DNA of 21,908 nucleotides from a virus: IMG/VR virus record IMGVR_UViG_3300028844_001869, positions 1 to 21,908 of that record; one strand, 5' to 3'. The stretch's first letter is position 1, and each line of letters starts with the position of its first letter. A program made the translations under genes and the position numbers. Below are positions 1 to 21,191 of this stretch, piece after piece. The notes below the pieces were generated by a model that was not told the origin of the DNA, searched no databases, and saw nothing but the letters and a program-made list of their open reading frames with translations.

Positions 1-1815
1 GCCGTACAGCGCCCAAAGTTCAGTTTCTACGCCGCCAATAACTCCATCCACTGTAATTCGTGATGTCCCGTTGGAATCAAGTTTTAAGCGGTGCTGGTAG
101 CCATAAGTGCCGACGTTAGTAGTCGCACCGGTGTAGCTTGTAGTTGCCGCAATCATGTACGGTGCATTTTGGTTAGGAGCGTAGGAGACAACCTCTGCTA
201 CAACTTCATCGCTGGTCGTAAGACTGCCAGTAACATCTACGCCGCCGCTTGTGGTGTTTAGCTTTTCTGCGCCGTAATAGTACATCTTGGCTTCGCCGGT
301 AGAGCCATCAGCAGCGAAGTAATTTGCAATACCGCCAGACCCGTCGTCAGACTGGATATAGACGTCTTTATCGTTCGCTATATTAGTTAGATACAAATTT
401 CCGGTAGCAGCGGTAACGTTGCCATTAGTCCCGTTAAATTTAATGAGCAGGTCGTTGTTATCACCAAAACGCAGCTCATTGTCGTCGCCAAGTGAGACAT
501 GCGAGGTAGAAGTTAACCCAGCAAAAGTAGGATCATCAGTTGTAGCAACGCCCTGATTAAGAGCCTTAACAGAAGCTATAGAAGTTAGCTCGCTGTCCAT
601 TAGCGCTCCAGCAGAAGTAACGTTTGCTGTATCAGTTACGTCAGCTCCTACTTCTATGCCGTCTAGCTTTGTGCCGTCTGCCGCTACATCTCGACCATCA
701 ACGGTGCCTGTAACGGTTACTGAGCCAAATGTAGGGCTGTCGTTAGGCTGTACTGCGCTATCTGCTAAAGCGCCTTGAGCGGCAGTGGCATAGTCTGAAC
801 TATCAAACGCTTTAACTTGAGCGAGGTTTGTTACCTCACTATCCATCAAAGCACCAGCAGCGGTCACGTTTGTTGTGTCGGTTACATCAGCATTAGCTTC
901 AATACCGTCTAGCTTTGTGCCGTCTGTTGCTACATCTCGACCATCAACAGTACCTGTAACAGTTACTGAGCCAAATACAGGGCTGTCGTTAGGCTGTACT
1001 GCGCTATCTGCTAAAGTGCCTTGAGAAGCGGTAGCATAGTCTGAACTATCAAACGCTTTAACTTGAGCGAGGTTTGTTATCTCGCTGTCCATTAGCGCAC
1101 CAGCAGCAGTGACGTTTGTCGTGTCTGTTACGTCTGCATTAGATTCAATAGTATCAAGTTTCGAACCGTCAGCTGCTACATCTCGACCATCAAATGTACT
1201 GTTCGTTGAGATTGCACCTGTCATAGCGCCACCAGATGTCATTAAAGCTCCAGCAGCGGTCACGTTTTCTGTATCAGTTACGTCTGCGCTTGCTTCAATA
1301 CCGTCTAGCTTTGTGCCGTCAACGGCAACATCGCGACCATCAACTTCGCCGTCTTTTAACAATACGCCGTCAATAGTAACGCCGCCGTCTGCTGTGGTTT
1401 CGTCAATATTATCGACTGTTATTTTCTGGCTGGCGTCTATAATAATGTCATTTGCGCCAGATGTGTTTCCATTGTCTAAAATTTCTGACAACTCATTTAC
1501 AGATTCAACCTGACCATCCACGTAGGATTTGATTGATTGCTGAGTTGCCAACGCTGTGGCGCTATCGGAGACCAAATCATCTTCATCAAGGATGGCTGTG
1601 ACAGTCGTGCTTGCCGCAATCGTCAGGTCTGTATTAGCTGCCAGATTAGTTGCTGTAACCGCCACTGGATCGTTTGCGCCAATTATTGCGCCGTCGATTG
1701 AGCCGCCATTTACATCAATGGCAGTGATTGGAGCCGTGCCGTCAACCTTTTCGATGGCCTCGTTAATCTTGGTGCGGATAGAGAGACCGCCTTCGCCATT
1801 GTTAAAAGTCGCCAT
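1..1815 (-). CDS. Repeat-rich tail fibre protein, C-terminus beyond left edge
   Basis: I translated this frame by hand: it is open from the ATG at 1815 to base 1 (605 codons, no stop), so the gene continues outside the window. The start has a good ribosome site (GGGGAG, overlapping the stop region of the previous gene). It begins MATFNNGEGG, and near residue 85 carries LATQQSIKSYVD, a motif I know from many phage fibre proteins. The middle holds four copies of a module beginning DGRDVA-DG-KLD-IE and running through ADVTDT-NVT-AGALM; the last three are spaced exactly 82 residues apart. The composition is rich in G, T, D, A and N with few aromatics, as expected of a trimeric beta-structured fibre shaft. 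The C-terminal visible part (LRFGDNNDLLIKF) looks like a fibre tip-proximal domain. The likely role is host recognition or a side fibre at the tail end. The class is firm; the receptor and the end of the protein are unknown. Confidence 0.85.
   Translation of the reverse strand, partial: MATFNNGEGGLSIRTKINEAIEKVDGTAPITAIDVNGGSIDGAIIGANDPVAVTATNLAANTDLTIAASTTVTAILDEDDLVSDSATALATQQSIKSYVDGQVESVNELSEILDNGNTSGANDIIIDASQKITVDNIDETTADGGVTIDGVLLKDGEVDGRDVAVDGTKLDGIEASADVTDTENVTAAGALMTSGGAMTGAISTNSTFDGRDVAADGSKLDTIESNADVTDTTNVTAAGALMDSEITNLAQVKAFDSSDYATASQGTLADSAVQPNDSPVFGSVTVTGTVDGRDVATDGTKLDGIEANADVTDTTNVTAAGALMDSEVTNLAQVKAFDSSDYATAAQGALADSAVQPNDSPTFGSVTVTGTVDGRDVAADGTKLDGIEVGADVTDTANVTSAGALMDSELTSIASVKALNQGVATTDDPTFAGLTSTSHVSLGDDNELRFGDNNDLLIKFNGTNGNVTAATGNLYLTNIANDKDVYIQSDDGSGGIANYFAADGSTGEAKMYYYGAEKLNTTSGGVDVTGSLTTSDEVVAEVVSYAPNQNAPYMIAATTSYTGATTNVGTYGYQHRLKLDSNGTSRITVDGVIGGVETELWALYG
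661..1152 (-). repeat. Two tandem 246-bp direct repeats inside the fibre gene
   Basis: Copies at 661-906 and 907-1152 are nearly identical, each starting with GTCTAGCTTTGTGCCGTCT on the plus strand. A diverged third copy begins at about 1153, and a further partial copy of its first part lies near 1303-1340. The core ATCTCGACCATC recurs at 688, 934 and 1180, exactly 246 bp apart, with a related site at 1330 (150 bp further). The unit is in frame and encodes 82 residues, so copy number can change without breaking the reading frame. Confidence 0.9.
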
Positions 1816-15045: not shown

Positions 15046-16576
15046 CGTATGCCACTTGGTATAGAACGTCTGCTAGATCTTTACCCTCAAGCGATCTGGC
15101 CTTAGCCTTCGCCCAAGACTGACCGGCGTCTCCACCCCAAAGAGCCCAAGCAACTCTACCGGCGCTAGGATAACCTTTCTCTCCCGGTCGGAAGCCTTCT
15201 GCCCTCTTGTCTACCTCATGCCGAGCGAAGAAGCTGTTCATCCTCTTGACCGTGTCGGCCGACAGGCTTTTGCCGTTGACGATGTCTCTGGCTCGCGCAA
15301 CGCCTACAGCAGTTCCTCCTCTGTTGTGTTCCTTGCGCCAATCAAGACCTTTCCTGGCCTCTGATCGCATGCCCTGAGAAGGCTTGAAGCTGTCTGCCTT
15401 GGTTTCAACCTGACCAGAGACCTCTTTCAGCTCGCCTTCCGGATCGGAGCTGAAGCCCATCATGATCCTGCTTTCTTGCAGCGTCAAAACGCCTTTGTCG
15501 TATGCCTCAACAGCCCGATCAAACTTCTTCTTTCTGACTCCCTCGAGAGCAGAGACGCCATCTAGGTTGAGCTTGAACTTCAATCCCTCTTCATAATTTG
15601 GAAGAAGCCAAGCCGACAAGCCGCCAACGAACTCTTGCATCGTTGGTATGACGGTGTCGGTGTAGAGCCTCTCTTTAGCCTGCTCTAGGTTGTTGAATGT
15701 GCTCGCGTCATTATCTACCAGAGGTAATGGCACACCAAGCGCCGACGAAACATATTTAGACATCTCTTTCATGGTGTTGATAAAGTCCATGTCCATGGGA
15801 GTCTTGCTCATCTCGACGAACTCGGCATCGTCGGCTAGCATTGGGATCTCACCGCTGTTTCGCTCCCCAGACATGGAAGACTTGAAGTATTCCCTCATCC
15901 TCTGAATCGCCTCTCCGCCCGGATATCCGCCTTTGAACCTTATCAAGCCGGAAGGTCTGGCGCTGTTCTTGAGCAGACTGTAGTTCCACGTGCTGCCGGC
16001 ATTGTGCGTGTCTACCGAGAGCGCAGCTGCCATCAGAGGCGATTGTCCTCTCCAATAGTTGTCTGGGTTGTAAGTCTTAACGAAAAAGACGCAAGACTCT
16101 CCTGTGATCGGGTCAACCTCGAAGTATTGCTCGTGCCTTCCTTTGACGTGGCAATAAGCCTTGGGCAAGCCTCTAGTTCCGGGCTTGACTTCCATGTCAA
16201 CTGGATTTAGAGGCCACAGCTCAACGTAATTGTCGTCTGGCGCTCCGACGCAGAAGCACTCACCGAACAACATCCTGTTCGTGATCATCTCGCCCAGCCA
16301 CTGCTCGTAAGACTGCCATGGGTTGGGCTGAGCCAATAGCTCTAGAACAGGATGCTCTTGCAAGACCTCTTCGTCCCTGCAGACCTCTAGAGGTATGTTC
16401 TTACAAGCCTCGACGACCTCCCTGATCGCACGATAGACCACGACATTGAGCTGATACCCTTCTCGGATATAGGTTCGTCGGTCTGAATTAGAAGACCAGC
16501 TAGCTGAAGAACTGAAGTAGAACGATTGCCCTGCAGGGTGCTCTTTCTTCTCTGGTCTGGTGTCAAAGGGCCACAT
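15038..16576 (-). CDS. Portal protein with extra C-terminal domain
   Basis: I place the start at the ATG at 16576 (512 residues). It overlaps the large terminase stop by one base (TGATG) and lies 7 bases after GGAG; the GTG just upstream is less well spaced. Residues 1-380 are a HK97-type portal: YQLNVVVYRAIREVVEACKN, EHPVLELLAQPNPWQSYEQW, NRMLFGECFC, NYWRGQSPLMAAALSVDTH, and the crown and stem region SALGVPLPLVDNDASTFNN. Residues about 396-505 are an added domain containing ARKGLDWRKEHNRGGTAVGV, FFARHEVDKRAEGF and GYPSAGRVAWALWGGDAG. I have seen this domain in other phage proteins near capsid genes, but I know of no function for it. The portal forms the dodecameric DNA gate of the head. Confidence 0.94.
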   Translation of the reverse strand: MWPFDTRPEKKEHPAGQSFYFSSSASWSSNSDRRTYIREGYQLNVVVYRAIREVVEACKNIPLEVCRDEEVLQEHPVLELLAQPNPWQSYEQWLGEMITNRMLFGECFCVGAPDDNYVELWPLNPVDMEVKPGTRGLPKAYCHVKGRHEQYFEVDPITGESCVFFVKTYNPDNYWRGQSPLMAAALSVDTHNAGSTWNYSLLKNSARPSGLIRFKGGYPGGEAIQRMREYFKSSMSGERNSGEIPMLADDAEFVEMSKTPMDMDFINTMKEMSKYVSSALGVPLPLVDNDASTFNNLEQAKERLYTDTVIPTMQEFVGGLSAWLLPNYEEGLKFKLNLDGVSALEGVRKKKFDRAVEAYDKGVLTLQESRIMMGFSSDPEGELKEVSGQVETKADSFKPSQGMRSEARKGLDWRKEHNRGGTAVGVARARDIVNGKSLSADTVKRMNSFFARHEVDKRAEGFRPGEKGYPSAGRVAWALWGGDAGQSWAKAKARSLEGKDLADVLYQVAYGD

Positions 16577-17796
16577 CACAACACTCCGAATATATTCTCT
16601 ATTGATCCACCGACCATAGGCTGCACTGCGTAACGCAGAGCGTCGATGTAATGATTATTCGCGTCGACCATCTTCGGCAATATGTCGCCGGACAGACGAT
16701 CCTGCTTGTAAGAGTAGAGCCTGAACTCTCTGGCAGTCTCAGAGCAGTCAGGGTGTATGATCACCCGGTCCATAGACTTGATGAAAGATACACCATCCTC
16801 TACGCTGCCCGGCCACTTCTTGACTGACCTTATGCTTGGTATGCCGTGCCGTTGCAGGTAGCTTATGGACTCTGGCCTAGCACTGTCTGCCCTAACAGTG
16901 TGCATCGCTATCGTTGGCATTCGGCTCGTGACGAACGAGGCAGTGTCATCCAGCTCTAGGGCGACCCTGCCAGCCTCTCTCCTGATGTACAGGCGTTCGT
17001 CTTTTATGTAGCACTCAACTGCTGCTGTGGGGTCTTGAGCAAAGCCAAAGTCTAGGCCGAAGTATGGCCCGTCCCAATGGGACTGCGGCTCAAACTCTTG
17101 CACCTCGAACTTGCTTGAGAACACCTGAGCGTCGCTGTTCTGAAGGTAGTCGCCTTCCCAGATGTGCGCATACGTATTTGCGTCTAGCCTTCCCATCTCC
17201 CTAGTTCTTAGCATCTCCAGGCCTTCAGGGAAGAATGGGTTGTCGCTCCAGTTCAACCCAGCTATTAGAGCTGATTCAGGAGGCTTTCGCCTGAACCTCT
17301 TGTCAACAGGACTGCTTTCTCTCCTAGGATTCCATATAGCCCAAAGCTCAGACTTTGGTTGCCTGAAGACGGTTGCCTCTAGAGCAAGCCAAGACTCTTC
17401 AGGAACGTCTTCTGCCTCTTCGACTATGGTCAGATCGATGCCAGCCAAAGACTTGATTGAGCTAGAGTTGTGCCTCAGACCTCGGAACACAAACTCTGTG
17501 CCATTCCTCCCGCGCAAGTAGTCAACGCCTACTTCATAGTGCGCCTCTAGCCAAGGAATGTTGCTGATGACATCCTTGACCTCTCTGTGGAAGCTGTCTT
17601 TGATTGAGACCTGAAGCTCCCTAGTGCAAAGGATCCTGAGAGGCTCTGCATAGCCCCACACAGCTGCAATCAGCGCTGCCGTCTGAGACTTGCCTGAGCC
17701 ACGGCCTCCGTAAGATGCCCTGTACTGAACAGAGCCTCTTGCTGGGCCATACACATCGACCAGCTTTTCGGGTATCTCAACCTTTGCGCTTTGCAT
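16576..17796 (-). CDS. terL: Large terminase, ATPase and nuclease
   Basis: This 406-residue packaging motor protein resembles the PBSX-type terminase group. The Walker A motif is GGRGSGKS at residues 30-37. Walker B and the catalytic glutamate are in DLTIVEEAED (121-130). A coupling-like motif region follows with LWAIWNP. The C-terminal RNase H-like nuclease has candidate metal-binding Asp residues D249 (GLDFGFAQDPTA), D304 (VRADSARPESI) and D385 (NHYIDALRYAV). The length is normal and nothing is missing. The ATG lies 20 bases inside the small terminase gene, so the two are co-translated. The protein docks on the portal, pumps DNA and cuts the concatemer. Confidence 0.97.
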   Translation of the reverse strand: MQSAKVEIPEKLVDVYGPARGSVQYRASYGGRGSGKSQTAALIAAVWGYAEPLRILCTRELQVSIKDSFHREVKDVISNIPWLEAHYEVGVDYLRGRNGTEFVFRGLRHNSSSIKSLAGIDLTIVEEAEDVPEESWLALEATVFRQPKSELWAIWNPRRESSPVDKRFRRKPPESALIAGLNWSDNPFFPEGLEMLRTREMGRLDANTYAHIWEGDYLQNSDAQVFSSKFEVQEFEPQSHWDGPYFGLDFGFAQDPTAAVECYIKDERLYIRREAGRVALELDDTASFVTSRMPTIAMHTVRADSARPESISYLQRHGIPSIRSVKKWPGSVEDGVSFIKSMDRVIIHPDCSETAREFRLYSYKQDRLSGDILPKMVDANNHYIDALRYAVQPMVGGSIENIFGVL

Positions 17797-18100
17797 CTGC
17801 TGCCTGTATTACTATGGTCGTCGGTTGAAGAGTGCCGTCCGAAGATGAGTGATCCATAGACTGTTGAGGCTTGCCGTAACCTCTATCCAGAAGAGCGTTT
17901 GCAGCGGTGATCCTAGCCGTGTCGCTAGGAGAGTTCATGCAAACATCTATGAGAGTCTTGAGGGCATCCATCGTGTGAGAGCGAGCGAGCTCAGACAGCT
18001 TGATCGCAGATTCACGCGTCTTCGTCGTTGGGGAGCCGGGCTTGCGACCTGCGCCCTTCCTGGCCCCTCCCCTTCCGCTCTTCTTAGGTCCGTCTGGCAT
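17777..18100 (-). CDS. Small terminase subunit
   Basis: This 107-residue protein lies immediately upstream of the large terminase gene and overlaps it by 20 bases. It has a very basic, Gly-rich N-terminus (GGARKGAGRKPGSPTTK), an AT-hook-like pattern common in small terminases and related DNA-binding phage proteins. A helical section follows (AIKLSELARSHTMDALKTL and ARITAANALLDRGYGKP), matching the repeat-like helix-turn ending of such proteins (A--ALLDRGYGKP). It ends in a polar, basic tail. It would recognise the packaging site and load the large subunit. The ATG is preceded by AGGAT. The exact DNA target is not visible. Confidence 0.88.
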   Translation of the reverse strand: MPDGPKKSGRGGARKGAGRKPGSPTTKTRESAIKLSELARSHTMDALKTLIDVCMNSPSDTARITAANALLDRGYGKPQQSMDHSSSDGTLQPTTIVIQAADAKRKG

Positions 18101-18168
18101 TGAATCCTATCTTTGATTTAAGGTTCAGGCAGATTGGATTATCTTGTAAAAAAGAAGTAAAAGAAAGC

Positions 18169-18417
18169 TCATTGTTTCGTCTGGGTTCCAAGTTCTAAAT
18201 TATCTCTGGTTTCAGCAACTCTATAGCTTCTTTCTCTTTCTCTCTTATCAACTACAACGAAGAAGAAGAGGTAAATAAGCGTCCCAAGAGTAACCAGAAC
18301 AAGCGATAATTTAGAACTTGGAACCCAGACGATCCCTTGGTTTTCTTGCCTTCCTCTCTTTTTCTTGCGAAAACGACGATAAATCTTTCCGCATAATCCA
18401 GGTTCCAAAGGCTGCAA
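18169..18417 (-). CDS. Doubtful small membrane protein ORF
   Basis: This is an 82-residue ORF starting with TTG at 18417, without a clear ribosome site. It begins 3 bases after the end of the nuclease stop codon. The product is basic at the N-terminus (IYRRFRKKKRGRQ), has one strong hydrophobic segment (KLSLVLVTLGTLIYLFFFVVV), and a highly charged C-terminal part (DKRERERSYRVAETRD). This looks like a single-span inner membrane protein. However, both arms of the inverted repeat lie inside it and encode SSKLS and NLELG regions, so the coding signal may be accidental. If real it could be a small lysis- or exclusion-type membrane protein, but I make no functional claim. Confidence 0.3.
   Translation of the reverse strand: MQPLEPGLCGKIYRRFRKKKRGRQENQGIVWVPSSKLSLVLVTLGTLIYLFFFVVVDKRERERSYRVAETRDNLELGTQTKQ
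18177..18332. repeat. Long inverted repeat upstream of the terminase genes
   Basis: The arms 18177-18204 and 18305-18332 are perfect reverse complements over 28 bases; the left arm begins TCGTCTGGGTTCCAAGTTCT. Pairing continues inward with only two mismatches and one wobble to 18212/18297, giving 33 complementary positions of 36. The arms are separated by about 84-100 bases of purine/pyrimidine-skewed sequence. No T-run follows the right kind of stem, so this is not an ordinary terminator. Confidence 0.95.
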
Positions 18418-18419
18418 TG

Positions 18420-18851
18420 TCAGGATGAGAACGGGTCAAAGGTGTCTTTAGCCTCTTCCCACATCGAGAGGCTGTATCTAGACTGGTTTTCTATCTTTAT
18501 CGTTCCATCTTCTTCTTTCCTAGACTCTTGAACCCACATCGACTGCATACTTCGCCAATCAAATGTGATGATGGTTTTGGTGCCCTTGATCCCGGCCAAG
18601 AAGAAGCTTCTGCCGCCAGCATCATTAATCTTCCTAGAGAACATCCTTTGAGCGCTCTGCGCCTTGACGTACAGCTCGCCTTTAGATATTTCTGCCAACT
18701 TGAGCTCTATGAATACCGAGCTAGGCCCATTGACAAGCACCAAGTCAGAAGCGCCGACTGTGCCTCCAGACTTGTTTTCTATCCAGACGATTTCGCCCCA
18801 TGCCTTACGCTTGATCCAAGCTCTGACATCTGCCTCTGTTTTAAATTTCAT
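18420..18851 (-). CDS. Small PD-(D/E)XK-type nuclease
   Basis: This is a 143-residue protein. The frame is open to 18926, but the ATG at 18851 has a GAGGGTG ribosome site and starts the conserved part, while the upstream 25 residues are Arg/Gly-rich and unlikely. Motifs are GGTVGASDLVLVNGPSSVFI with D36, then IELKLAEISKGEL with E49 and K51, and VKAQSAQRMFSRKINDAGG with Q65. This order (G-SDL, then F-E-K, then Q) is that of VRR-NUC and Holliday-junction-resolvase-like nucleases found near phage primase/helicase genes. It could resolve recombination or replication intermediates before packaging, or trim DNA ends. The exact family is not certain. Confidence 0.78.
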   Translation of the reverse strand: MKFKTEADVRAWIKRKAWGEIVWIENKSGGTVGASDLVLVNGPSSVFIELKLAEISKGELYVKAQSAQRMFSRKINDAGGRSFFLAGIKGTKTIITFDWRSMQSMWVQESRKEEDGTIKIENQSRYSLSMWEEAKDTFDPFSS

Positions 18852-18971
18852 TCGTTCACCCTCATAATTCCCTCGTCGCCTCTGTTTCCCGGTTTCCAGC
18901 GACGAGGGTCGGCCTTGCGACCTCAACCAGATTTCGTGGCGCTGGGGGCGCCTTCTCTGGCTGTTCTTTAT

Positions 18972-21191
18972 TTACATTTCGCTTTCGCTTATCTCGGAAG
19001 GCTTGACAATGAATTCACGTATGCAGTTCATTGGTTCTTTCGACCTCTGAGCAGCGTCCCAAGCTTGATCATTCAGCAGTGCATACTGAAGCCTCCCATG
19101 AGCCTTGACCCTCTGAGGCCAAGAGTTTATGCCTGAGTCTGTCATCGCCCTTCTTATCTCGTAGTCGCTGTCGAATACCCTTCCTTGAACTGAGTTCCTT
19201 ACCCAAGCAATGATGTCTTTCATTAGCAGAGCAGCGGCCTCTTTCTTATCCTTCAGCTGCTCTGCCAAAGCAGCGGCCTCCGCCTGAGCCTCAGACCTTG
19301 ATCCTTCGATGAGCTCTTTCTTGCGCTCAGTCATTGGCGCTCGTTCTGCAGGATTCACATATTCTCCATACTTGTTGGCCCATTGCTTGACGATCGAAAG
19401 ACCACCGCTCTGAAGCCATCTCCGCAGTGCAACGAACTTCTCTTTCGGCCAAGCGACTTCAGTCACTTCAGGATAAAACCAACGCCTGTCATCATTCTCC
19501 ATCTTGAGCGCTCGCATTGAGTTTGAGCAAGCCAGCACATGGCACCAGTTGTCTATCACATACTGACGCATATATTTCTGATTCACCGTGACGTCTTGGT
19601 CTGTTATGACGCTCTTGAGAGCATTGTAAGCCTTCCACGAAGAGCCAGAGTAGATCTCATTGACGATCGCGAGACGCTTATGAGCTACCCAGTCGTTGAA
19701 CGCAGACGTTATGTCATTCTCTCCTGGGAACCCGACATTCTGTATACCGACAAGAGGCGCAAGGATGGACGCTCCGAGCGTAGTTTTCCCAATGCCCTGC
19801 CTTTCGCTCACCAGCAGAAGGCCATATGCCATGCGCGTCTCGGGCTTTGCTATGATCGTTGCGCACCACTTGAGAACCTCTTTGAGCTCTTTTTCGTTCA
19901 CGAACATGTATTGCATGAACTCTAAGAACGGCGTGGCGTCGCCTGCGGTCTGCTTGATGTTGGAGGGGACGTGCAGGTTGATTGCATTAGCACCTCTGTA
20001 GTCAACCAGAAGGCCAGAGTAGTCTGGTCTGTAGCAGACCTTTGCAGAGCGGCCTTTGTAGCTCTTTGTTATCAGCCTTGACGTGTCGCTGGCGTGGCTA
20101 AACGCAGCGACCATTTTGTTCATCACAGCCTCAGAGCGAATGATCTCCGGCATTTCTGTGCAAACGAAAGCGTCAGCCTCTTCCACATACGCCCACATCT
20201 GCTTGAAGCTGTCTCTCAGAACCGTTGTCGGACGACCTTTGCCGGTAGAGCTTGGAATGAGGTCTGTTGCCCATGTCGCCGGGTTCATCAGAGACCGCAT
20301 AGAAGGTCCGACGTAAAAGTCAACGCCGTCTAGCTCTTTGAACATCTCTTTCGGAAATTTATCCGCAAGGTCAAAGCTCGGAGGAAAGCGGTCATTAAAC
20401 TCAATGGAGAAAGTAGTGACCTTGAGCGCCTTTGAGATGGATGTTATTGAAGAGCGACCGGCCTCATCATTGTCTGAGACGATGTAGGCTCGTTCTACGC
20501 CTTGCTTCATCAGAACCTTCCAGTCAGTCCGGTTTGGATTCATCGCGCCACCGATCCAACCGACGTGCGCAGCGCCAGAAAGCTCATCGCCCCAAGGGTG
20601 CGCCTTACGAGCCTCTGTTGCGATGCGAGACTTGCCCTGCGTCAGCCATTGGCAATAAGCCGCTGCCTTTGCGCCTTCGTGAATGAAGACAACCTTGTTG
20701 TCCTTGAGCTGCTCTAATCCCCACAATGGCAGCTCACCATCAGGCTCGCACATCCTCCACTTCTCGTCGTCCCAATAGGTCCAAGGCACATAATTCTTGG
20801 TCACCGCTCCATCGCTTGAAGTATTGTCGATCCTAACCTGAATCATCAATATCTGCTTTCCGTCTGCGGTCCGGAACTCAAATATGTTCTCTGGCTCCGA
20901 AGACTTGATCATCGGAGGAGGATTGATGATGCGGTTTATGCGCTTGATCTTTGGGAAGTCGATGCTGTCCCAAACTGACGCTATCAGCGCTTGCTCTGCC
21001 TCGGTTGGAGAGTGCTCAAGAGAAGAGCAGCTTATCTCTCCATCTTTGCCAAAGCGAATGACCGCTATATCCTTCCAATAGTTTCCGGCTGTCTCTCGGA
21101 CAACAGCAGTTTTTATTGACCTAGGCTCTGCCCCAACCCTGTTCAAATAGTCCCTGACTGCCGGTATTTCATCGAGCGAGCTAATCTTCAT
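18972..21191 (-). CDS. TOPRIM primase / SF3-type helicase
   Basis: This 739-residue replication protein shares ATGA with the end of the polymerase gene. A TOPRIM domain lies at about 160-265, with VVFIHEGAKAA (E172) and AYIVSDNDEAGRSS (D240, D242). An AAA+ helicase domain like those of DUF5906/D5-type phage proteins follows, with Walker A SERQGIGKTT (462-471), Walker B RLAIVNE ending at E512, a polar sensor LACSNS with N557, and an Arg pair in DDRRW (569-570). Residues 630-665 form a coiled coil (SEAQAEAAALAEQLKDKKEA). I see no N-terminal Cys/His zinc-ribbon, which many TOPRIM primases have. The protein likely primes and unwinds at the fork for the adjacent DNA polymerase. Confidence 0.9.
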   Translation of the reverse strand: MKISSLDEIPAVRDYLNRVGAEPRSIKTAVVRETAGNYWKDIAVIRFGKDGEISCSSLEHSPTEAEQALIASVWDSIDFPKIKRINRIINPPPMIKSSEPENIFEFRTADGKQILMIQVRIDNTSSDGAVTKNYVPWTYWDDEKWRMCEPDGELPLWGLEQLKDNKVVFIHEGAKAAAYCQWLTQGKSRIATEARKAHPWGDELSGAAHVGWIGGAMNPNRTDWKVLMKQGVERAYIVSDNDEAGRSSITSISKALKVTTFSIEFNDRFPPSFDLADKFPKEMFKELDGVDFYVGPSMRSLMNPATWATDLIPSSTGKGRPTTVLRDSFKQMWAYVEEADAFVCTEMPEIIRSEAVMNKMVAAFSHASDTSRLITKSYKGRSAKVCYRPDYSGLLVDYRGANAINLHVPSNIKQTAGDATPFLEFMQYMFVNEKELKEVLKWCATIIAKPETRMAYGLLLVSERQGIGKTTLGASILAPLVGIQNVGFPGENDITSAFNDWVAHKRLAIVNEIYSGSSWKAYNALKSVITDQDVTVNQKYMRQYVIDNWCHVLACSNSMRALKMENDDRRWFYPEVTEVAWPKEKFVALRRWLQSGGLSIVKQWANKYGEYVNPAERAPMTERKKELIEGSRSEAQAEAAALAEQLKDKKEAAALLMKDIIAWVRNSVQGRVFDSDYEIRRAMTDSGINSWPQRVKAHGRLQYALLNDQAWDAAQRSKEPMNCIREFIVKPSEISESEM

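What the first reader, a model, noticed from the sequence alone, without database searches (positions are those of the whole stretch)
18177..18332. 28-bp perfect inverted repeat (36-bp extended) before the terminase genes
Two arms about 100 bases apart match perfectly in a packed genome where almost all other sequence is coding. The location between replication and packaging modules fits a packaging recognition site, an origin element, a large RNA structure, or the scar of a small mobile insertion.
Basis: seen in the sequence. Interest (0 to 1): 0.55.

Follow-up and report, generated by a model that had tools for sequence, protein, structure and literature searches.

The report
Repeated hairpin element in uncultured phages
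The mirror-image repeat is real and is one copy of a recurring hairpin-like element that a group of uncultured phages keeps at the boundaries of gene blocks, so it looks like a gene-control signal rather than a DNA-packaging site.

Summary
The repeat is real: perfect 28-nt arms, 18177-18204 and 18305-18332, 100 nt apart, between a nuclease-like gene and the putative small terminase gene. A twin contig carries it unchanged. Diverged relatives carry a hairpin at the same place with different, mostly still complementary arms. Of 47 phage loci with a related primase, 19 (15 distinct lineages) have it at this boundary; 11 end before it. At least three Pfam terminase types follow it. A covariance model finds two or three copies in 6 of 26 records. 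Copies in one genome share an arm sequence (12.2 of 14 positions) that differs between genomes (8.15 of 14). Several lie just before a start codon. In 11 of the 19 a NusG-like antiterminator gene comes next; not in the window. I read it as a phage-specific operon-boundary regulatory element, most likely a hairpin in the transcript (0.45). Strand tests do not decide between RNA and DNA, so a DNA operator is close behind. Packaging site, origin, small gene or insertion scar fit worse. The nearest known kind is the start-associated inverted repeats of some actinobacterial phages, also of unknown function.

The parts
18305..18332 (-). 5' arm of the element as read on the gene strand; holds the box GGTTCCAAGTTC at 18314-18325
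18205..18304 (-). spacer; partly self-complementary, with a pyrimidine-rich first half and a purine-rich second half that relatives partly keep
   Evidence: interior alone not more structured than shuffles in this copy
18177..18204 (-). 3' arm of the element, perfect complement of the 5' arm; box at 18184-18195 on the + strand
18420..18860 (-). nuclease-like gene just upstream (VRR-NUC-like by motif, recalled; weak PHROG matches 'DNA helicase' and 'endonuclease')
17777..18100 (-). putative small terminase gene downstream (by position; PHROG 15261, unknown function)
16576..17796 (-). terminase large subunit, Pfam Terminase_3 and Terminase_3C
18972..21191 (-). DUF5906 primase-like gene, marker of the lineage that carries the element

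Best explanation
The repeat is one copy of an undescribed, dispersed inverted-repeat element of a lineage of phages with a DnaE-like polymerase and a DUF5906 primase. Shown: it is kept at the boundary between the replication block and the late block; its arms differ between phages but stay mostly complementary; a genome can hold two or three copies with a shared arm sequence; several copies end shortly before a start codon. Inferred: it is transcribed as part of the leader of the next gene block, folds there into a long hairpin, and sets the fate of the transcript, by RNase III-type cutting and protection of the downstream message or, where a NusG-like gene follows, by helping to load an antiterminator. 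The shared arm sequence is presumably read by a phage-specific factor. That it is a conserved regulatory family I hold at about 0.85; the RNA hairpin mechanism at 0.45.
For: Same boundary in 19 of 47 primase-related loci, 11 of the 47 ending before it. Arms with compensatory changes: 9 of 32 predicted pairs in a six-sequence alignment; 4 double changes in the first 30 pairs between window and L111. Covariance model finds non-training copies (L129, L144, L116 at E 7e-8 to 2e-7) and two or three places in 6 of 26 records. Shared arms within genomes. Position between genes of one direction, in 15 of 23 copies with a Shine-Dalgarno-like stretch and start codon within 13-48 nt by a loose pattern. 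NusG-like gene next in 11 of 19.
Against: No clear strand preference: G-T 80 against A-C 58 mismatches, p 0.07; gene strand folds better in 19 of 28, p 0.09. Interiors structured at z below -2 in only 7 of 23 on the gene strand and 8 of 23 on the other. Two second copies are flipped relative to the late copy of their genome by direct alignment. A shared arm sequence fits a DNA-binding protein at least as well. No NusG-like gene in the window or its twin record, and NusG-like genes occur without the element (L041, records G022 and G025). No transcript data.
Confidence: 0.45

Rival explanations
1. DNA operator: the two arms are binding sites in duplex DNA for a phage-encoded regulator that binds pairs of inverted boxes at operon starts, perhaps with looping; the hairpin is incidental.
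For: Arm box is genome-specific and shared between copies; no strand bias; flipped copies; interiors mostly unstructured.
Against: Perfect arms reach 28 nt here, and in G015 20 and 28 nt with one mismatch between, long for an operator; paired changes lie beyond the box.
Confidence: 0.32
2. Mobile or formerly mobile palindromic element (MITE-, REPIN- or Correia-like) that spreads inside phage genomes.
For: Terminal inverted arms; two copies 97% identical and 46 kb apart in G015; flipped copies.
Against: Same boundaries kept across diverged phages while the arms change; no target-site duplication was looked for; 0 of 385 alphaproteobacterial genomes matched, a weak test.
Confidence: 0.12
3. Packaging site (cos/pac) or replication origin.
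For: Lies next to the terminase genes and after the replication block.
Against: Terminases of at least three Pfam types follow it; two or three copies in 6 of 26 records, some before a helicase or a tail gene.
Confidence: 0.05
4. A small membrane-protein gene lies across the element (82-aa frame 18169-18417).
For: An open frame crosses the element in the window, and L111 and L116 have a similar one.
Against: Only 8 of 23 copies have any frame open through the element on the gene strand, and beyond L110, L111 and L116 the peptides look unlike; no ATG start in the window's frame (TTG).
Confidence: 0.03

Closest known systems
Start-associated and extended start-associated sequences (SAS/ESAS) of Cluster K mycobacteriophages (PMC3203893, passages read)
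   Same: Several inverted repeats per phage genome, upstream of translation starts, with a consensus that differs between phage groups; function unknown.
   Different: There 17-bp imperfect repeats with a mostly 4-13 bp spacer beside a 13-bp SAS; here arms of about 12-28 nt or more, spans of about 107-180 nt, two or three copies, no SAS found.
18-bp inverted repeats of Cluster EG Microbacterium phages (PMC7302621, passages read)
   Same: Intergenic inverted repeats, typically 14-22 bp upstream of start codons, conserved although the region differs.
   Different: One short 18-bp palindrome, 8-10 instances, same sequence in all three phages.
Correia repeat enclosed elements of Neisseria (PMC2649163, passages read)
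   Same: Inverted repeats with a core, up to about 157 bp, often 5' of genes; in mRNA the stem is bound and can be cut by RNase III.
   Different: About a hundred or more chromosomal copies with evidence of mobility; here few copies in phages at fixed boundaries, arms unlike between genomes.
LoaP and its leader hairpin in Bacillus velezensis (PMC12691694, passages read)
   Same: A NusG paralogue working through an RNA hairpin in an operon leader.
   Different: Small UNCG-type hairpin before an intrinsic terminator; here a long hairpin, no terminator-like site near the window's copy, and NusG-like gene next in only 11 of 19.

Membership tests
Phage start-associated inverted repeats (as a kind) | Several copies per genome upstream of starts, phage-specific consensus | tested here: met
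   Met in relatives: 6 of 26 records with two or three places, shared arms, 15 of 23 near a start by a loose pattern. In the window itself one copy, 76 nt before the next start.
ESAS of Cluster K mycobacteriophages | 17-bp repeats, short spacer, beside a 13-bp SAS | tested here: not met
   Arms and spacer far longer; SAS itself not searched for.
NusG-paralogue antitermination site (LoaP/RfaH type) | NusG paralogue in the same phage | tested here: inconclusive
   Next gene in 11 of 19 boundary copies; none in the window's 21.9 kb or its twin record, both incomplete.
NusG-paralogue antitermination site (LoaP/RfaH type) | Protein binds the element and prevents termination | not testable with these tools
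   Needs bench work.
RNase III processing site | Transcribed long duplex cut in vivo | not testable with these tools
   Long duplex predicted; no transcript data.
Intrinsic terminator | GC-rich stem followed at once by a T run | tested here: not met
   0 terminator-like sites in 17700-18950.
Known RNA families (Rfam 15) | Match at the family's gathering score | tested here: not met
   0 in the window; three microRNA-precursor models far below their gathering score, best E 1.7e-5 at 32.8 of 245 bits.
cos/pac packaging site | Tied to its terminase, single site | tested here: not met
   Terminases of at least three Pfam types follow it; several copies in 6 of 26 records.
MITE-like mobile element | Target-site duplication and empty sites | not tested
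   No clean empty site was compared.

The most novel reading that the evidence does not exclude
The element is the recruitment signal of a new phage processive antitermination system: each phage marks its gene blocks with a hairpin of its own arm sequence, and a co-evolving factor, in many members a NusG paralogue encoded right after the late copy, loads there and carries RNA polymerase through the late genes.
Probability: 0.2. Interest if true: 0.8.

Novelty: new variant of a known kind. Interest (0 to 1): 0.55.

Why it matters
It turns a lone palindrome in one contig into a lineage-wide signal, multi-copy in several members, whose sequence changes from phage to phage while its pairing and place mostly stay. 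That points to a recognition code between a phage and its own regulator. Similar repeats are known in a few actinobacterial phages, where the papers read here call their function unknown; a separate lineage with longer arms and, often, a neighbouring NusG-like gene gives a concrete hypothesis to test.

Tried and rejected
Packaging site: dropped because the element goes with unlike terminases and is multi-copy. tRNA, Rfam families at gathering score, intrinsic terminator: none; one sigma-70-like site on the other strand, 0.7 expected by chance. Small gene: frames mostly not shared. Bacterial hosts or prophages: R1 over 385 alphaproteobacterial genomes found nothing, with stricter filters and no positive control, so it shows little. 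Three named phages with a DnaE or helicase 32-38% identical to the lineage (Cronobacter Ss1 whole; 50 kb each of Serratia MyoSmar and Luteibacter Pluto) gave no match to R1. BLAST of two copies of the element and of two NusG-like proteins against named phages gave nothing useful. An RNA-versus-DNA decision by G-T/A-C bias and by folding the interior failed. An arm comparison with looser anchoring over 26 copies gave p 0.08 for within- against between-genome pairing; anchoring each arm at a GG[ATC][ATC]C start over 23 copies gave 0 of 5000; that anchoring makes the first bases alike in all. Rows of the 28 dropped: L135, L139, L140, L141, L152 (other arm type or place). Own-arm pairing tests are partly circular, since many copies were found as inverted repeats.

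Paper searches listed nothing that describes this element, judged by titles and abstract starts. Passages were read in PMC3203893, PMC12691694, PMC7302621 and PMC2649163; all other papers were seen as listings only. The names MITE and REPIN are used from general knowledge and a listing.

Full report
The window has two perfect 28-nt arms, 18177-18204 and 18305-18332, with 100 nt between. A symmetric alignment of the whole stretch pairs 57 of 69 aligned positions in Watson-Crick fashion, and it folds far better than shuffles on either strand. The neighbouring genes run on the minus strand: a DUF5906 primase-like gene, a nuclease-like gene, the element, a putative small terminase gene, terL and portal. 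The C-terminal part of a DnaE-like polymerase lies upstream; the twin contig L001 carries most of that gene, 35-39% identical to phage DNA polymerase III alpha subunits in the rows listed.

The twin contig L001 matches 11,330 bases of the window with 12 differences, none in the element. Contigs with a 78-79% identical TerL but other genes upstream (such as L002 and L008) lack the repeat. The nuclease-like gene led to L085 and L086, which have the same gene order where covered; L085's primase is 81% identical. They carry a hairpin at the same place with outer box GGTTCCAAG...CTTGGAACC and a partly different stem. In the first 30 stem positions compared between the window and that phage (as L111), 19 pairs are the same, 4 changed on both sides and stayed paired, 3 window pairs are broken in L111, 2 mismatches of the window are paired in L111, and the rest are one mismatch in both and one G-U.

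A primase alignment brought in 47 loci. I sorted them by eye. In 19 an element lies at the replication/late boundary: L110, L111, L114, L115, L116, L117, L119, L120, L121, L122, L123, L124, L125, L126, L129, L130, L131, L133, L144. L114/L115, L119/L120 and L123/L124/L125 are near-duplicates, so these are 15 lineages. L121 is degenerate (E 0.59); L123, L124 and L131 are weak (E 0.05-0.19). The gene before it is nuclease-like in most, not shown in L131, and in L133 that gene is farther upstream. Eleven loci end before the boundary (L090, L091, L092, L112, L113, L118, L132, L148, L149, L151, L153). Eleven have another gene order (L134-L143, L147): 8 have a hairpin with other arms, between a DUF932 gene and an SNF2-like helicase gene in L139, which R1 scores weakly or not at all; L136 and L138 end before that site; L134 shows none. 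L152 has a different-looking hairpin between primase and nuclease. Five show none (L127, L128, L145, L146, L150). Whole records of L127, L134, L145, L146, L150 and L151 gave no R1 match at E<=0.01.

The arms vary: GGTTCCAAGTTC, GGCTCCAAGCTC, GGCTCAAAGCTC, GGTTCGTAGTTC, GGTACCAGTTC, GGTACGGGTTC, GGATCCAAGATC and others. In an alignment of six, 9 of 32 predicted pairs have at least one sequence with both sides changed and the pair kept; several inner pairs are broken in one or two sequences. The covariance model R1 from these six finds copies outside its training set on the gene strand: L129, L144 and L116 at E 7e-8 to 2e-7, L130 at 5e-6, L126 at 5e-4; L133 matches best on the other strand at 0.0016, and L130 and L126 score slightly better there too. 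As controls, 34 loci sharing only a TerL gave none at E<=1, and 54 further loci (565 kb) gave only L095 at E 0.02, a locus fetched by an arm pattern. In the window no second copy was found with filters off.

R1 over the whole records behind 26 handles matched 16; 6 of the 26 (G005, G008, G013, G015, G016, G021) hold two or three places at E<=0.01. Sites recur: the late boundary; a place before a helicase-like or another gene near it; and, in two large records, before the same tail gene (baseplate-like by recall; no Pfam match). Copies in one genome share their arm sequence: 12.2 of 14 positions within genomes (20 ordered pairs) against 8.15 between genomes (486), with 0 of 5000 label shuffles as extreme, over 23 copies with 15 genome labels; L119 stands there for G008 and L123 for G010, whose copies are identical. 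A looser anchoring gave p 0.08. Two copies in G015 are 97% identical though 46 kb apart. By direct alignment two second copies (G008, G013) are flipped relative to the late copy of their genome; for the G013 copy R1 prefers the other reading.

Place and neighbours suggest regulation. By a loose pattern 15 of 23 copies have a Shine-Dalgarno-like stretch and start codon within 13-48 nt (chance level not measured, and some of these starts are not those of the next gene); the window's copy is not among them, its next gene starting 76 nt on. In 11 of the 19 boundary copies (7 of 15 lineages: L114/L115, L117, L119/L120, L122, L123/L124/L125, L129, L133) the next gene is NusG-like. Four of these proteins match PHROG 6386 'transcription antiterminator' at E 3e-8 to 1e-11, three with weak Pfam NusG or KOW matches and L129 with none; the others come from a profile of the four or the PHROG model. 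That model also rings in 12 of 14 control genomes, so it marks NusG-like proteins in general. The window, L111, L116, L121, L126, L130, L131 and L144 have none next, and L041 and records G022 and G025 have NusG-like genes without a recognised element.

The terminases differ: Terminase_3 with 3C in the window and L111, Terminase_3 with 6C in L126, Terminase_6 domains in L116, L117, L119 and L130, TerL_ATPase/nuclease in L129. That speaks against a packaging site.

Whether it works as RNA or DNA is open. Over 28 copies, G-T exceed A-C mismatches 80 to 58 (p 0.07) and the gene strand folds better in 19 (p 0.09; Wilcoxon 0.06). Without the outer 20 nt of each arm, 7 of 23 interiors have z below -2 on the gene strand and 8 of 23 on the other. 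So in most copies the arms, not a full-length fold, are what is kept. The 3' half often keeps a purine-rich stretch even where its 5' partner changed. I favour a transcribed hairpin, because of the leader position, the long arms and paired changes beyond the box, at 0.45; a DNA operator at 0.32.

Compared with what is known, the closest kind is the start-associated inverted repeats of actinobacterial phages: ESAS in Cluster K mycobacteriophages, whose consensus also differs between phages, and the 18-bp repeats of Cluster EG Microbacterium phages. Arm length, spacer and copy number differ, so this is not ESAS proper. Correia elements show that such palindromes can act through RNase III, and LoaP shows a NusG paralogue working through a leader hairpin. 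No named phage carrying the element was found by the searches made, and no paper describing it in the searches listed under Tried and rejected.

Noticed in passing
window 556-1343: A tail-protein-like gene holds four copies of a 146-nt direct repeat (68-75% alike to the reference copy), spaced 246, 246 and 150 nt.
   Followed up: no
L101 1879-2033, L102 3862-4006, L103 447-593, L105 5780-5928, L106 8479-8633: Phages with another large terminase gene (about 500 aa) have tandem GGTTCCAAGGTTCC boxes as inverted repeats in non-coding gaps; R1 scores them only weakly (E 0.08-0.8 for the best of L101, L102, L103, L105; L106 not scanned). They may be a second lineage with such an element or a convergence.
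   Followed up: partly
window 18401-18409; L085 around 5423: A further half-box (GGTTCCAAA; GTGGAACC in L085) sits just after the nuclease-like gene in both phages; single boxes are at about chance level in the window.
   Followed up: partly
L130 6259-7164: Here the gene after the element is an ADP-ribosylglycohydrolase (Pfam E 1e-65).
   Followed up: no
L009 1080-1280: Another strong palindrome, built of repeated CAGTGG/CACTGACC units, in a phage that shares only the terminase.
   Followed up: no
L109 8235-8348 (Sphingomonas echinoides ATCC 14820): A GC-rich hairpin (z -2.8) lies between a 40% identical primase gene and the next gene, 23 nt before its start; possibly a distant counterpart in a prophage-like region. 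R1 does not match it.
   Followed up: partly
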